From an uncultured Bacteroidales bacterium (GTDB lineage: Bacteria > Bacteroidota > Bacteroidia > Bacteroidales > Bacteroidaceae), in the NCBI GenBank assembly GCA_902792555.1, contig CADAZW010000005.1, positions 1 through 35,046 on the forward strand: a stretch of 35,046 nucleotides of DNA, written 5' to 3'. The notes under the pieces were generated by a model. That model worked only from the letters and a program-made list of their open reading frames with translations, did not search any database and had not been told where the DNA came from. The position numbers were made by a program, and so were the translations under genes. Positions 641 to 34,550 of the stretch are shown here, piece by piece (the stretch's first letter is position 1; each line of letters begins with the position of its first letter).

Positions 641-725
641 ACACTTCTTCTATTCTAGAGGAGGGAAAGGATTTCCTCCCTTTTCATCGGGAAAATCGCC
701 AGGCAGAAAACCCGTTTCGTAAAGT

Positions 726-933
726 CAAAATCTAATCGCGTATGGATTATTTATTATTGCGTAAGAATATTCTTTTATCGCGAAGAAAAGAAATTTAATC
801 GCGTCGAGCCGAAATCTAATCGCGCCGAAATCAAATCTAATCGCGCCGAAACTGACCACTTCCTCGCGATTATTTTTTTCCTTCTCGCAATTAAAAAAAT
901 TCTCTTCGCGGAAAATTCTTCTATCCTCGCGAA
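726..933. repeat. 21-base-period CGCG array, copy 1
   Basis: Five-base cores (TCGCG or TTGCG) start at 736, 757, 778, 799, 820 and 841, exactly 21 bases apart. The better-conserved units read roughly CCGAA..AAATCTAATCGCG. After TAATCGCG (838-845) come 19 bases and then its reverse complement CGCGATTA (865-872). To the right, CGC continues at 865, 886, 907 and 928, again every 21 bases, in AT-rich sequence. The array lies in the gap between the first gene (+) and the antiporter gene (-), whose 3' ends face each other. The minus frame is open through it, but 21 is a multiple of three, so this is expected. See copies at 22320 and 34271. Confidence 0.85.
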
Positions 934-1069
934 AATTTTTCTTAAGCCCACATTCCCTGGCTTTATGTCCACGTTAAACATCTTAAAGTAAACGGCAAGA
1001 AAAAGGCACAAATGACTTTGGCCATTAAAAATTGCCTACTTATTAGTGTTCCGCCCTTACCACACAATT

Positions 1070-17108: not shown

Positions 17109-20100
17109 CTATCTGACCATAACCTTACGCATCCTGCCGTCAGCGTAGCGCACAATGTTTATACCTTTCTGCAAAGCATTGAGGCGCTGGCCATTGAGGG
17201 AGTATATCTGCACTTCTTCATTGCAAACCACAAATCCGGCAACACCCGTTACATAGGCATTGACCTCTACATTGTGGGCAGGCATAGTAGCAGGAATATC
17301 CTCCCAAGCATAGAAGAAGTCATCGTCCTCAGGGTCTTCTTCGGGAGTAATTGTAGCACCATAGTCTAAGGTAACGATCTTGTAAACACTGCCGTCAAGC
17401 ATGTAGGTAAGGGTGTACTGATTGACGGTAAAATAAGCCTCATATTCCACGTCGGCATCGGGCATCGTGGCAGCCACACCGGTCCAACCGCTGAAAGTAT
17501 AGCCTTCCTTGGTCGGTGCCTCGGGCACAACGATGGCTGCACCATAGCTCAATATGGCGGTGCTGAAAACATTGCCGTCAACCTTGAAGGTAACAGTATG
17601 CGGATTGTCAGCAAACGTGCCGGTAACAGTCACATCGTGAGCTGGCATAGTGGCAGGAATAGTACTCCAGCCGCTAAAGACAAAGCCAGTCTTTGTCGGA
17701 GCCTCAGCAGGAGTGATGGCAGCGCCGTAGTCAAGAGTCTCTGTCTTATATTCTGCCCCGTCAACCAAGTATTTCAGCGTATATTGATTGACCTTATACT
17801 GCGCAGTGTACTCCACATCCCTGGCAGGCACCGTGGCATCTACCTCGCCCCAGCCTTGGAAGGTGTAGCCCTCTTTGGCAGGACCTGCCGGCGCAGTGAT
17901 GGCAGAGCCGTAGTCCTGCTTCTGTTCGCTAACCACATTACCGTCAGCAACAAACCTGACTGTGTACTGATTGATATTGAACAGCGCCGTACATACCAGG
18001 TCATGGGCCGGCATTGTCTCTTCATAACCATCCCATCCCGCAAAGGTATAACCTTCCTTGCTCGGCGATTTAGGGTTTAGGATGATGGAGCCATAGTCGG
18101 TATCCATCTCAAGGGTAACCTTACCGTCCACCACGAAGGAGAGATGATAGCTGTTTGCCTTATATTGCGCAGTGTATTCCACATCCCTGGCAGGCACCGT
18201 GGCATCTACCTCGCCCCAGCCTTGGAAGGTGTAACCTTCCCTTACGGGACCTGCCGGCACCGTGATGGCAGAGCCGTAGTTCAGCCTCGTTTCGCTGACT
18301 ACCTCATCGTTGGCAACAAACCTGACCACATACTGATTGATGGTATAATTGCCTGTAATGTCAATATTGTTGATTGGCATCACGTCCGGCACACCATCCC
18401 AGCCGCTGAAGGTATATCCCTCCTTCTCTGGGGCTTCTGGCTCCTCTATGCGGTCGCCTACCACTATGTCCTTCTGACTCACAACCGCTCCATCGACAAA
18501 GAAGGTCGCCTTTGAATACACCGGATCTAAAGAAACGGTATTGTCCTTCAGCCATATGCGCGTGGAGCCGTCAGGATCAAAGCCGGTGATATAGCCGCCT
18601 TCAAGGATGTACTTCTTCACCTTACCCCACTGCTCGTAGCCGCTCTGCTGAGCGCCAAGCCAAATGCGATAAACTCCGTCAGCAATGCCGTCAGGCAGAT
18701 TGCCAGAGAAATTGTCAGTACGCGAATAGTAGGAATACTGCCCAAGCCCTGAGACAGCCTTGGTAGAGCCAAAGGCTGCAATCCTGTTGTTCTTGTCGTC
18801 GGTAAGCAGCATTTGCAGGGTACCGGAGAACTCTCTTTCTGTCGTGTTCATCACGTCAGTGGCAGCAAGGCTTACAGAGCGAGTGCCAGACGATGTAACC
18901 GCGATTATGCTTGATGCAAGGGAGGGGCTGTAGGCCGTCGGATCGTTTTCGATATATATATTTGGTGAACTGCCGGTAACAATCGCCACGTCTACACTGG
19001 CGCCGCTGGCACGGGCATAGCATTTCAGTATGTATGTGCCAGAGGTCATGCCTTCGGGGAAATTGCAGTCGACAGTGAAGCTATAGTCCATACCGCTCTT
19101 GAGCGTCAGGTCGGGAATGGTGCTGACGACATAGGCATTGTTGGACTCATCTACCAAGGCCAGCCTGAGAGATCCCACAAAATCATCAATATTGCCTACA
19201 CAAAGGTCTATAACAGTAGCTGCCAGCGACTCTCCCTCGTGCACCCTCACGCTGGTGGTGCTTGGCTCGATGGCTTTAGCCTGTATTGTCAGCAGGCGGT
19301 CCTGTGTCCCATTGTCGGGCTGTATGCCCACTATGGCACAGATGTCCTCCGACAGCGTATTATCTGCTATGCCGTCATAGCATAAGTCGGGCATCATATA
19401 GTAGCCGTCGAATTCACCGCCCCATCCCCAGTTGACATAATAATAGGGGTCTTCACCGTCATTGACCGTGTATCCATGGATTATAAACATGTGACCGGCA
19501 TTACCCTTGGTGTGGGCTGACATAATCATCGGGCGCCTGGCCTTAAGCTCTTTGGTGAGAGCTTTGTGCCAGTCGTCTGCTGTCATACTCTCGCGCTTGA
19601 TGATGGCCATGTCCTTGTCGTAGCCATAATACTTGTGCAGGCCTGCCATTACGTCCTTCTGGAAGGAGCCGCTCTCCACATCATAATCCATATCTACCGC
19701 CACTCCGCAGCCGTAGAACAGTTCAGAAATGGCCGCCACCTCTTCGTCGGCGTTGTCAATAGGCGAATAGGTGTCTTTCATGAGGTCCCACTGCAGGGGG
19801 TGGGTATCATAATTCCAGCTCTGGCTGAGCCCATGTGTCTCAGTCGTGTAGGAGTGGGAACCCTTGCCTTTGGCGGGATTGCGGTAATAGTACATACACT
19901 GTGCCATGGCCGTGGCTCCGCATCCGGTAACGGCCTTTACGCCTGGCTTATACTCGGGGCACAGCTCGTTGTATGGCTTGCCCTGGCCCCATTGGGTGGT
20001 AAGGAATGGCGCCACGCTCTCTGTTGCACCCACCACGCCTTTGTCTTCTGCACCGGCATAGGTCCTGCTCCTCGCCCCGAGGGTGGAATATTCCTTCTCG

Positions 20101-20447
20101 TATAGGCTTAGCCATTCCCTTAAATTGTCAGGCATATTGTCTGCGTCAAAGTCGACGGCCGTACTGTAGGCCAGCACTGGAGTCATCCTCTCGTCGCCCG
20201 ACACAATAACAAAACCCTTGCCCGTGCCAGAACTGAATATATAGTACGGCTCATTGCCCACGGCTGCCGGCGCTTGGGTGCCGGCAAACATCTTGCTCTT
20301 GGCGCTGCCGACTATATTTCCCACGGGCGACTGTGCAACAATCTCCATCACTTGGCCCATGCTGCGCTGCTGCGCCATAGAGCCTTGCGGATAGGTCAAG
20401 AAAAAGACCATAGCCGCCAATGCTACTGTTAATCTCGCTCTTACCAT
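17109..20447 (-). CDS. Secreted C10 family (streptopain/SpeB-like) cysteine protease with InlB repeats
   Basis: The 1112-residue protein has a signal peptide (about residues 1-25), then an inhibitory propeptide of the Spi_C10 type (to about 140), then a papain-fold catalytic domain. Cys176 in TGCGATAMAQ, His319 in AGHMFIIHGY and Asn339-Trp340 in YYYVNWGWGG match the SpeB active site. Gln152 may form the oxyanion hole. After a beta-sandwich linker (about 385-640) come seven InlB/Listeria-Bacteroides-type repeats of about 61 residues (646-1068, GYTFxGW signature). The end (IYSLNGQRL to KVMVR) is a type IX-like tail. Such enzymes (interpain, periodontain) degrade host proteins. The start ATG at 20447 leads straight into the signal peptide. 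Host targets are unknown. Confidence 0.92.
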   Translation of the reverse strand: MVRARLTVALAAMVFFLTYPQGSMAQQRSMGQVMEIVAQSPVGNIVGSAKSKMFAGTQAPAAVGNEPYYIFSSGTGKGFVIVSGDERMTPVLAYSTAVDFDADNMPDNLREWLSLYEKEYSTLGARSRTYAGAEDKGVVGATESVAPFLTTQWGQGKPYNELCPEYKPGVKAVTGCGATAMAQCMYYYRNPAKGKGSHSYTTETHGLSQSWNYDTHPLQWDLMKDTYSPIDNADEEVAAISELFYGCGVAVDMDYDVESGSFQKDVMAGLHKYYGYDKDMAIIKRESMTADDWHKALTKELKARRPMIMSAHTKGNAGHMFIIHGYTVNDGEDPYYYVNWGWGGEFDGYYMMPDLCYDGIADNTLSEDICAIVGIQPDNGTQDRLLTIQAKAIEPSTTSVRVHEGESLAATVIDLCVGNIDDFVGSLRLALVDESNNAYVVSTIPDLTLKSGMDYSFTVDCNFPEGMTSGTYILKCYARASGASVDVAIVTGSSPNIYIENDPTAYSPSLASSIIAVTSSGTRSVSLAATDVMNTTEREFSGTLQMLLTDDKNNRIAAFGSTKAVSGLGQYSYYSRTDNFSGNLPDGIADGVYRIWLGAQQSGYEQWGKVKKYILEGGYITGFDPDGSTRIWLKDNTVSLDPVYSKATFFVDGAVVSQKDIVVGDRIEEPEAPEKEGYTFSGWDGVPDVMPINNIDITGNYTINQYVVRFVANDEVVSETRLNYGSAITVPAGPVREGYTFQGWGEVDATVPARDVEYTAQYKANSYHLSFVVDGKVTLEMDTDYGSIILNPKSPSKEGYTFAGWDGYEETMPAHDLVCTALFNINQYTVRFVADGNVVSEQKQDYGSAITAPAGPAKEGYTFQGWGEVDATVPARDVEYTAQYKVNQYTLKYLVDGAEYKTETLDYGAAITPAEAPTKTGFVFSGWSTIPATMPAHDVTVTGTFADNPHTVTFKVDGNVFSTAILSYGAAIVVPEAPTKEGYTFSGWTGVAATMPDADVEYEAYFTVNQYTLTYMLDGSVYKIVTLDYGATITPEEDPEDDDFFYAWEDIPATMPAHNVEVNAYVTGVAGFVVCNEEVQIYSLNGQRLNALQKGINIVRYADGRMRKVMVR
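17244..18512 (-). repeat. Seven tandem InlB B-type repeats in the protease gene
   Basis: Protein units of about 61 residues (183 bases) each run Y-x3-F-x2-DG ... YG ... P-x2-P-x-K-x-GYTFxGW ... MPA-x-D. Units 2 and 4 are almost identical at DNA level, for example over about 65 bases from 17804 and from 18170, exactly 366 bases (two units) apart. The last unit is degenerate (DDFFYAW). Confidence 0.85.
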
Positions 20448-22319: not shown

Positions 22320-22458
22320 AAACTTTTAGCGCAGAGCCGGAATCTAAACGCGTTGATTTGAAATCTAAACGCGTGCTCATGAATTATGAGCACGCGTTTA
22401 AATCGTACCTGCTCGCAGTTTGTTTGTGGGAGATCGCGTTATTTTCTACTACCCTCGC
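22320..22458. repeat. 21-base-period CGCG array, copy 2
   Basis: Left units have cores at 22327, 22348 and 22369 (21 apart), the better two reading AATCTAAACGCG. TAAACGCG (22366-22373) is followed by exactly 19 bases and then its reverse complement CGCGTTTA (22393-22400). Here the spacer is itself inverted, so the full stem reaches 15 bp (22366-22380 with 22386-22400). To the right CGC continues at 22393, 22414, 22435 and 22456 with 21-base phase. The core differs from copies 1 and 3 (TAATCGCG), and the inverted partner differs to match. The gap is between convergent dprA and the prenyl-synthase gene. Upstream, 22187-22260 holds only the small palindrome CTTCGCGAAG. Confidence 0.8.
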
Positions 22459-32868: not shown

Positions 32869-33980
32869 CTACACATTGAAGCGGAAGTGCATTATGTCGC
32901 CATCCTGCACCACGTAATCCTTGCCCTCAATGCCCAGCTTGCCAGCCTCGCGCACTGCTGCCTCGCTACCATATTTTATATAGTCGTCATACTTGATTAC
33001 CTCTGCGCGTATGAAGCCTTTCTCGAAGTCGGTATGTATCACGCCGGCGCACTGCGGAGCCTTCCATCCCTTGCGGTAGGTCCACGCCTTCACCTCCATG
33101 GGCCCGGCGGTAATGAACGTCTCCAGATTGAGCAGTCCATAGGCGGCCTTGATCAGGCGGTTGCATCCCGACTCCTGCAGCCCTGCGTCCTCCAGAAACA
33201 TCTGTCGCTCCTCGGGAGTTTCCAGTTCGGCAATATCCGCCTCCGTCTTGGCGGCGACGACCAGCACCTCTGCGTTTTCGTCCTTCACTGCCTCTCTCAC
33301 CCGCTCCACGTACTCATTGCCCGTGGCGGCATGAGCCTCATCCACATTGCAGACGTAAAGGACGGGCTTCATGGTCAGCAGGAAGAGGTTGCGGGCAGCC
33401 AGCTGCTGCTCCTTGCTATCGAAGGCCACGCTGCGTGCCGACCTGCCCTGGCCGAGAGCCTCCTTGTAGGCTGTCAGCACCTCGTATTCCACCTTGGCAT
33501 TTTTGTCTTTGCCTTCCTGTGCTATCTTCCAATCTTCTCGACGCGGCGTATGCGGTTCTCCACCGTCTCCAGGTCTTTTATCTGTAGCTCGGCGTCGATA
33601 ATCTCCTTGTCGCGCACGGGGTCAACGCTGCCGTCCACGTGCACCACGTTGTCGTCGTCAAAACAGCGCAGCACGTGCAGTATGGCGTCGGTCTCGCGGA
33701 TGTTGGCCAGGAACTGGTTGCCCAGTCCCTCTCCCTTGCTGGCGCCCTTCACCAGTCCCGCGATGTCGACAATCTCCACCGTAGCCGGCACCACTCGCCC
33801 CGGGTGGACAATCTCGGCCAGCCTGTTAAGCCGCTCGTCGGGCACGGTTATCACGCCCACATTAGGCTCGATGGTGCAGAACGGGAAGTTGGCAGCCTGC
33901 GCCTTAGCGTTGCTCAGGCAGTTGAAAAGGGTCGATTTGCCCACATTGGGCAAGCCGACAATTCCGCATTGCATACTCAT
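32869..33980 (-). pseudogene. ychF: Redox-regulated GTPase/ATPase YchF, frameshifted by an apparent 8-base duplication
   Basis: YchF (Obg-like ATPase, ribosome-associated) is universal and about 363-367 residues long. Here its sequence is split in two frames. The N-terminal 152 residues (33980 to stop at 33522) carry the P-loop [11 protein letters not shown] and [14 protein letters not shown]. The last 207 or so codons (up to about 33492) carry NVDEAHAA and the TGS-like domain (KAPQCAGVIHTDFEKGFIRAE in family form, ending DGDIMHFRFNV). The junction holds ATCTTC twice, 8 bases apart (33524 and 33532). Removing 8 bases gives an uninterrupted 367-residue protein reading [18 protein letters not shown]. 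The cause could be a real mutation or a sequence/assembly error. Confidence 0.9.
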
Positions 33981-34270: not shown

Positions 34271-34550
34271 ACGCGACAGAATTGATGCTGAGCCTGCCGA
34301 AGCTTGTGCTGAGCCCGTCGAAGCAAAATCTAATCGCGCCGAACCGAAATCTAATCGCGCCGAACCGAAATCTAATCGCGCCGAAGTTAAATCTAATCGC
34401 GCCGAAGTCAAAACTAATCGCGCCGAAACTGAACACCTCCGCGCGATTAAAAAAATTCTTCGCGCAGTTATTTCAATTGTCTGCGCAATTATTTCTATTG
34501 TCTTCGCGGTTTTTTCAATTATCCGCGAAGTCTGCGTTAACTTCCGCAAA
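34271..34550. repeat. 21-base-period CGCG array, copy 3 (longest)
   Basis: CGC occurs at 34337, 34358, 34379, 34400, 34421, 34442, 34463, 34484 and 34505, nine times running at exactly 21 bases. Left units read CCGAA.C.AAATCTAATCGCG. TAATCGCG (34415-34422), 19 bases, then CGCGATTA (34442-34449) marks the turn. The spacer (GCCGAAACTGA.CAC.TCC) is almost the same as in copy 1. Further left, two units share GCTGAGCC.G.CGAAGC (34287 and 34308, also 21 apart). Both strands stay open across the array in some frame. It lies between the remnant (+) and the small gene (-), again a convergent gap. Confidence 0.85.

What the first reader, a model, noticed from the sequence alone, without database searches (positions are those of the whole stretch)
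34271..34550. A three-copy intergenic element with strict 21-base phasing and a fixed 19-base inverted turn
Seen directly: three gaps (726-933, 22320-22458, 34271-34550) hold arrays in which a CGC/CGCG core returns every 21 bases, nine times without a slip in this copy. All share the same plan. Direct units end in TAATCGCG (or TAAACGCG), then come 19 bases, then the exact reverse complement of that 8-mer, then more 21-base units of a different, AT-rich kind. The spacing 8+19+8 is identical in all three although the sequences have diverged. This is not a simple slippage repeat and not a CRISPR array. I know of no named family with this plan.
Basis: seen in the sequence. Interest (0 to 1): 0.88.

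Follow-up and report, generated by a model that had tools for sequence, protein, structure and literature searches.

The report
Head-to-head 21-base intergenic repeat arrays
Between the genes of this bacterium lie dozens of short DNA arrays built from a 21-base unit that runs inward from both sides to a small hairpin; sampled relatives carry arrays of other sequences with nearly the same 21-22 base step, about two turns of the DNA helix, so the step length may matter more than the letters.

Summary
The plan TAAWCGCG, 19 bases, CGCGWTTA occurs at 48 places in this genome (reversed-pattern control 0), not three. Among 399 family genomes searched it is dense only here and in one sister species. 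The 19-base turn is the inside of a hairpin formed where two units meet head to head: its inner pairs covary, and 18-base versions exist. Same-strand exact cores lie 21 bases apart in 135 of 145 neighbouring pairs. The element is enriched between convergent genes, but is no more conserved than flanking DNA, shares no terminal repeats and does not look coding. Best reading: a dispersed, fast-turning intergenic minisatellite whose centre is a hairpin that sometimes resembles a terminator. The unexpected result lies outside the finding: in stretches from 24 genera, complex noncoding tandem arrays of mostly unrelated sequence have a 21- or 22-bp unit in 45 of 64 cases, with none at 25-31 bp. That two-helical-turn rule, if it holds, is the interesting part; its cause is unknown.

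The parts
733..837 (+). copy 1, left arm: TAATCGCG cores at 733, 796, 817 (733 to 796 is 63 = 3x21)
838..872 (+). copy 1, hairpin turn (8+19+8)
873..935 (-). copy 1, right arm: inverted T-rich units, cores at 886, 907, 928
   Evidence: sequence; right-arm consensus
22324..22365 (+). copy 2, left arm: TTTTAGCG (22324) and TAAACGCG (22345) units; too short and diverged to be called by the array finder
22366..22400 (+). copy 2, hairpin turn TAAACGCG-19-CGCGTTTA; 16-bp stem, 3-nt loop
34289..34330 (+). copy 3, two in-phase 21-bp units of the TGAGCC type; the second ends in CGAAGCAAAATC like the main unit
34331..34414 (+). copy 3, four TAATCGCG units before the turn, exact 21-bp step
34415..34449 (+). 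copy 3, hairpin turn
34450..34530 (-). copy 3, right arm: cores at 34463, 34484, 34505, T-rich spacers

Best explanation
A family of intergenic minisatellites specific to a pair of sister species. The unit is 21 bp (TAATCGCG + 13 bp). Units run inward from both sides and meet head to head, so that the heads of the two innermost units pair into a 35-nt hairpin (shown by sequence and covariation). Arrays grow and shrink by whole units through slippage or unequal exchange, and unit variants are copied between the arms (inferred from sister-species differences and covariation). They persist where extra DNA does little harm: long gaps downstream of genes, above all between convergent genes (context shown, reason inferred). 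The hairpin plus T-rich right arm can serve as a weak intrinsic terminator at some loci (inferred). The 21-bp length follows a family-wide preference for units of about two helical turns, cause unknown.
For: 48 turns genome-wide, control 0; same-strand exact-core spacings 21:135, 22:7, 63:3. Whole-unit differences from G139 at L081/L129 and L026/L139 (2 of 10 pairs aligned). Inner five pairs of the turn: 20 cells changed on both sides against 8.3 +- 2.0 in shuffles, 0 of 500 as high. Convergent/codirectional/divergent 20/18/3 for the 41 of 48 elements with both neighbours called; background gaps 8/45/11 (Fisher p 8e-5 for convergent). Orthologous identity of array arms 0.912 against 0.902 for other noncoding and 0.914 for coding: no sign of strong constraint. 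Unrelated 21-bp arrays sit in the same gaps in relatives: behind dprA in G139, upstream of ychF in G181, G096 and G260. Period 21/22 in 45 of 64 complex noncoding arrays of the family.
Against: How about fifty copies spread without terminal repeats or a found transposase is unexplained. Convergent enrichment could mean selection for a role, not mere tolerance. Covariation of the hairpin could also mean selection for pairing. The 21/22 preference across unrelated units is not predicted by plain slippage.
Confidence: 0.5

Rival explanations
1. Selected transcription terminators or boundary elements: the hairpin with the T-rich right arm ends transcripts, in both directions between convergent genes; extra units insulate.
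For: Convergent enrichment. The turn meets a TransTerm-like rule in 14 of 33 sense and 8 of 28 antisense cases; any terminator call after 12 of 82 background genes. Of eight turns folded, seven have z of -2.5 or lower and the eighth, L043, -2.29.
Against: The turn qualifies at fewer than half of the loci. The elements were chosen for a hairpin, so the comparison is biased. Another terminator-like hairpin lies between stop codon and turn in 8 of 33 sense and 6 of 28 antisense cases, and window copy 2 has a stronger one 105 bases after the start of the turn. The whole copy-3 element folds little better than shuffles (z -1.47, 18 of 200 as good). Conservation is at flank level.
Confidence: 0.2
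2. A phased binding array: a protein binds each unit, and 21 bp puts all copies on one face of the helix (nucleoid, segregation or loop function).
For: Near-strict step; 21-22 bp found across unrelated units and genera; several other unit families have palindromic cores.
Against: No protein was identified or searched for. Many different unit families in one genome would need many proteins. Arrays are no more conserved than flanks. Presence and content differ between sister species.
Confidence: 0.15
3. A miniature mobile element of the BrickBuilt or REP kind.
For: Dispersed intergenic copies; same order as the BrickBuilt host; the arrays of L063 and L068 have no counterpart at the orthologous place in G139.
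Against: No shared flank: the commonest 12-mer is in 5 of 48 left and 3 of 48 right flanks. No Y1 transposase found in G000 or G139 (both incomplete). Other transposases and target duplications were not tested.
Confidence: 0.12
4. Coding heptapeptide repeat (21 bp = 7 codons).
For: Open frames run through copy 3 on both strands.
Against: Over a 119-base core the best frame is open in only 36 of 48 elements, and two frames of the opposite strand in 33 and 26; no Pfam match for two such frames of copy 3; 22-bp arrays in other genera.
Confidence: 0.02

Closest known systems
BrickBuilt MITE/minisatellite of Porphyromonas gingivalis (PMC4596501; abstract, section 5 and part 1 of 2 of section 7 read)
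   Same: Bacteroidales; intergenic tandem arrays of a 23-nt unit, 19 places in strain ATCC 33277; imperfect units; limited host range; the paper also mentions 22- and 41-nt repeats in that species.
   Different: BrickBuilt has leader and tail segments with IS5-like terminal inverted repeats in some copies and reported bidirectional promoter activity; here no shared flanks, a head-to-head layout with a central hairpin, a 21-bp unit.
REP/BIME elements of enterobacteria (recalled, no paper opened)
   Same: Extragenic, palindromic, alternating orientation, mostly at 3' ends, many copies.
   Different: No RAYT-type transposase found in G000 or G139; unit 21 bp with near-exact step; no sequence relation tested.
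Heptamer short tandem repeats (STRR) of cyanobacteria (recalled, no paper opened)
   Same: Intergenic tandem arrays.
   Different: Seven-base units; here a complex 21-mer without an inner 7-base repeat. G000 also has separate low-complexity arrays of 14-bp best period.

Membership tests
BrickBuilt-like MITE | tandem direct-repeat array, intergenic, dispersed | tested here: met
BrickBuilt-like MITE | leader and tail with terminal inverted repeats | tested here: not met
   no 12-mer in more than 5 of 48 left or 3 of 48 right flanks (160 bases each)
BrickBuilt-like MITE | target-site duplication | not tested
   no clean empty site was seen in the gaps looked at; duplications were not searched for
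REP/BIME with RAYT | Y1 transposase in the genome | tested here: not met
   PF01797 none in G000 (81% complete) or G139 (86%); 4 of 19 genus genomes have it
REP/BIME with RAYT | hairpin-forming extragenic repeat at 3' ends | tested here: met
CRISPR array | near-identical repeats with variable spacers of similar length | tested here: not met
   units are contiguous without spacers; cas genes not searched for
Known RNA family (Rfam 15) | match at gathering score | tested here: not met
   0 matches in the window

The most novel reading that the evidence does not exclude
Noncoding tandem arrays of the family Bacteroidaceae obey a helical-turn rule: units are 21-22 bp (two turns; more rarely 32-34 and 42-44) whatever their sequence. 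Unrelated arrays replace one another in the same gaps while the step stays. This would point to an array-making enzyme or a coating protein that measures two turns of DNA, a bacterial counterpart of satellite DNA in which length is kept and sequence is not.
Probability: 0.3. Interest if true: 0.85.

Novelty: new variant of a known kind. Interest (0 to 1): 0.55.

Why it matters
Bacterial intergenic minisatellites are usually read as slippage products whose unit length is arbitrary. If the two-turn step holds across a whole family of bacteria, it names a measurable constraint and a searchable cause. For the element itself, it gives two sister species a set of length-variable loci and possible gene-end hairpins, and several turns lie within about 350 bases of a contig end (C39, C56, C69, C102), so such arrays may break assemblies.

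Tried and rejected
RAYT-driven spread: no Y1 transposase found in G000 or G139. MITE ends: no shared flanks. Coding. One long RNA hairpin over the whole element: z -1.47. Plasmid or phage origin: no match to copy 3. Rfam: none in the window. Stronger conservation than flanks: not found (11 pairs given, 9 aligned through the array, with single values from 0.75 to 0.98 for arms). A TAnnTTTG box (-7 of Bacteroides promoters, recalled) occurs on the reverse strand of some units, but by the repeat spacing the upstream TTTG lies 13 or 34 bases away, not about 20 (read by eye, no call); not pursued. The reversed-pattern control is of no use because CGCG and GCGC both occur in such arrays; the reversed control also hits a few other genomes, so single hits there are chance level. 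Literature: eight searches, mostly judged from listings, gave the BrickBuilt paper as the only close one, and one search lists two more papers that mention it (not opened); passages of PMC9426551 report noncoding deletions at intergenic tandem repeats in Planctomycetota. The library lacks most subscription papers, so nothing is claimed about print as a whole.

Weak points of the period survey: stretches are samples of very unequal size (1.4 to 100 kb per genus outside the focal genus); the window with its 3 arrays is among the G000 stretches; coding arrays and low-complexity arrays (inner period up to 10 bp above 55%) were set aside before the count (low-complexity: 31 in G000, 2 in G139, 5 in other same-genus genomes, 0 in the first set of other genera; 3 in the second). 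The share at 21/22 is 14 of 16 (G000), 11 of 16 (G139), 5 of 10 (six other same-genus genomes) and 15 of 22 (other genera). By a hexamer gene finder 4 of the 51 arrays at 21, 22 or 42-44 lie in a called gene. The non-Bacteroidales control (418 kb) had 13 complex arrays, none at 21/22, but 11 of them sit on the palindrome that brought the loci in, so only two are independent: it cannot show that the rule is special to this family.

Full report
What is there. Each of the three gaps holds the described plan. The pattern TAAWCGCG-N19-CGCGWTTA occurs at 48 places in the window's genome G000 (2.29 Mb, 145 contigs, 81% complete), with 0 for the reversed pattern. TAATCGCG-N13-TAATCGCG gives 88 forward and 64 reverse matches, control 0. 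All 48 places were extracted and oriented so that the arm with more cores is on the left.

Anatomy. The left unit is TAATCGCG followed by 13 bases such as CCGAAATCAAATC; the right arm, read on the opposite strand, is the same kind of unit with an A-rich spacer (consensus). Two innermost units meet head to head: 13 + 9 + 13 bases = 35. The outer eight pairs were imposed by the search, but the inner five were not. These carry 20 two-sided changes against 8.3 +- 2.0 in shuffles (0 of 500), and every slid control is lower; one of the five, columns 23-39, is unpaired in 36 of 48 sequences and another, 26-36, in 21. The 19-base turn is therefore mostly the inside of a hairpin. In G139 five of 20 places have 18 bases, among them one with a 15-bp stem and a 4-base loop (read off). 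Covariation may reflect copying between the arms as well as selection for pairing; the data do not separate these.

Strictness. In the fetched G000 loci, exact cores on one strand within 64 bases are 21 apart in 135 of 145 cases, 22 in 7 and 63 in 3. With one mismatch allowed, 156 of 199 are at 21, 16 at 42, 6 at 63, 14 at 22, and 7 at other distances. Exact-core turns are 19 in 45 and 18 in 5 (all). Of 48 elements 37 have two to four further left units; 24 have no recognisable second right core under the rule used.

Distribution. With spacers of 10-30, the turn occurs in 6 of 399 genomes of the family: 53 in G000, 16 in G139 (same genus), one or two in four others, where the reversed control also scores in a few genomes. 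G139 is the MAG RUG13363 by identical coordinates (inference; that RUG means rumen is recalled). In the named collection 12 of 70 stretches are RUG13363; the other 58 hold one place each, many in Nostoc and related cyanobacteria; records of the window's own genome may be left out there. The direct-repeat pattern is in 1 of 99 genomes of a phylum sample, the window's own.

Other arrays with the same step. A sequence-blind pattern (three CGCG, 21 apart) is found in 11 of 19 same-genus genomes, often in arrays with other units, although some matches look coding or single. At orthologous gaps, 16 genomes looked at in each case: within 520 bases behind dprA, G139 has two other arrays of 21 bp and no other genome has one called; the window's own copy 2 is too short to be called by the same rule. 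Upstream of ychF, 21-bp arrays are called in G000, G181, G096 and G260 with unrelated units, and not in G139.

Period survey. To remove the search bias I took stretches by contig number and fixed coordinates, and scored every period from 10 to 60 in noncoding DNA. Complex arrays numbered 64: 27 of 21 bp, 18 of 22 bp, 6 of 42-44, 6 of 32-34, 2 of 53, and 5 others (18, 18, 24, 56, 57). They fall into 52 unit families, 33 of them at 21 or 22. Outside the focal genus 15 of 22 arrays are 21 or 22 bp, in 9 of the 23 other genera sampled (genus labels). In three dinucleotide resamplings of the noncoding DNA no complex array was found. The helical clustering (R 0.78-0.84 for repeats of 10.3-11 bp) is carried mostly by the 21/22 class; the longer periods alone are too few, and 42-44 may be doubled 21-22.

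Gene context. Of 48 elements 41 had both neighbours called by a simple hexamer gene finder: 20 convergent, 18 codirectional, 3 divergent; background gaps of at least 100 bp were 8, 45 and 11 (Fisher p 8e-5 for convergent, 0.24 for divergent). For 21/22/42-44-bp arrays of all unit families in the unbiased stretches of G000 and G139 the counts are 8, 4 and 6 against 15, 83 and 23 (p 0.0025 for convergent; several share a gap), and in all other genomes 4, 8 and 6 against 61, 245 and 93 (p 0.50). So the convergent bias is seen in this sister pair, not across the family.

Function. The turn qualifies as terminator-like in 14 of 33 sense and 8 of 28 antisense cases; any terminator was called behind 12 of 82 background genes. 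Since the elements were picked for a hairpin, this is weak support. Identity between orthologous arrays of G000 and G139 is 0.912 for the arms (1127 of 1236) and 0.930 for the turn (291 of 313), against 0.902 for other noncoding (3978 of 4408) and 0.914 for coding sequence (23316 of 25516); 11 pairs were given, two did not align through the array. That speaks against strong purifying selection. Of ten pairs aligned over the array, two differ inside it by exactly one 21-bp unit (L081/L129, L026/L139), one differs by 21 bases in a neighbouring short repeat (L062/L128), one has another repeat inserted (L078/L135), and several align poorly on one side. L063 and L068 of G000 have no such array at the orthologous place in G139.

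Verdict. A new, well delimited family of intergenic arrays that behaves like a minisatellite; closest to BrickBuilt, but without its terminal repeats. Its head-to-head plan and hairpin are distinctive. The broader two-turn step is the part that would surprise a specialist, and it rests on a sample that should be repeated at full scale.

Noticed in passing
window 32869-33492 and 33522-33980 (-): ychF is split into two open frames (GTPase part and C-terminal part); the 15 best matches in relatives each have one open frame of 368-423 aa. Frameshift or assembly error.
   Followed up: partly
window 17109-20447 (-): Peptidase C10 with Spi inhibitor domain and six Listeria-Bacteroides repeat stretches.
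   Followed up: no
L217:5839-5943, L219:18289-18371, L223:15179-15282, L224:9003-9086: A second G000 family: TTCTTAGCTAAGAA-type palindromes every 22 bp; three of four lie in the middle of long divergent gaps.
   Followed up: partly
L032, L054, L064, L070, L073, L074, L050 near the arrays: Blocks 'TTTTTTTAGTG' + locus-specific iterated words + inverted copy + 'CACTAAAG...': flanks alike, inner words different from locus to locus, like fast-changing recognition sites (read off).
   Followed up: no
L031, L054, L055, L073, L074, L050 beside arrays; also inside the array of L135: A companion repeat with a GTCGCGCTGCAAGCGCGGTCCGAC hairpin, once found inserted between units.
   Followed up: no
window 34286-34330; L223:76-138; L046, L053, L063, L067, L068: TGAGCCYGTCGAAGCAAAATC and TAAAAGCCTTGAAACGAAATC units share the 3' linker of the TAATCGCG unit and, in the window, the first keeps its 21-bp phase: cores look swapped on a common linker.
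   Followed up: partly
window 650-735 and L077 left flank: The sequence left of copy 1 recurs at another locus, so some flank was copied with the array.
   Followed up: no
L145, L149, L154, L166, L183, L199 and others (Nostoc and relatives): Palindrome GACGCGATTAATCGCGTC in direct repeats every 33 bp, about three helical turns (found through the search pattern).
   Followed up: no
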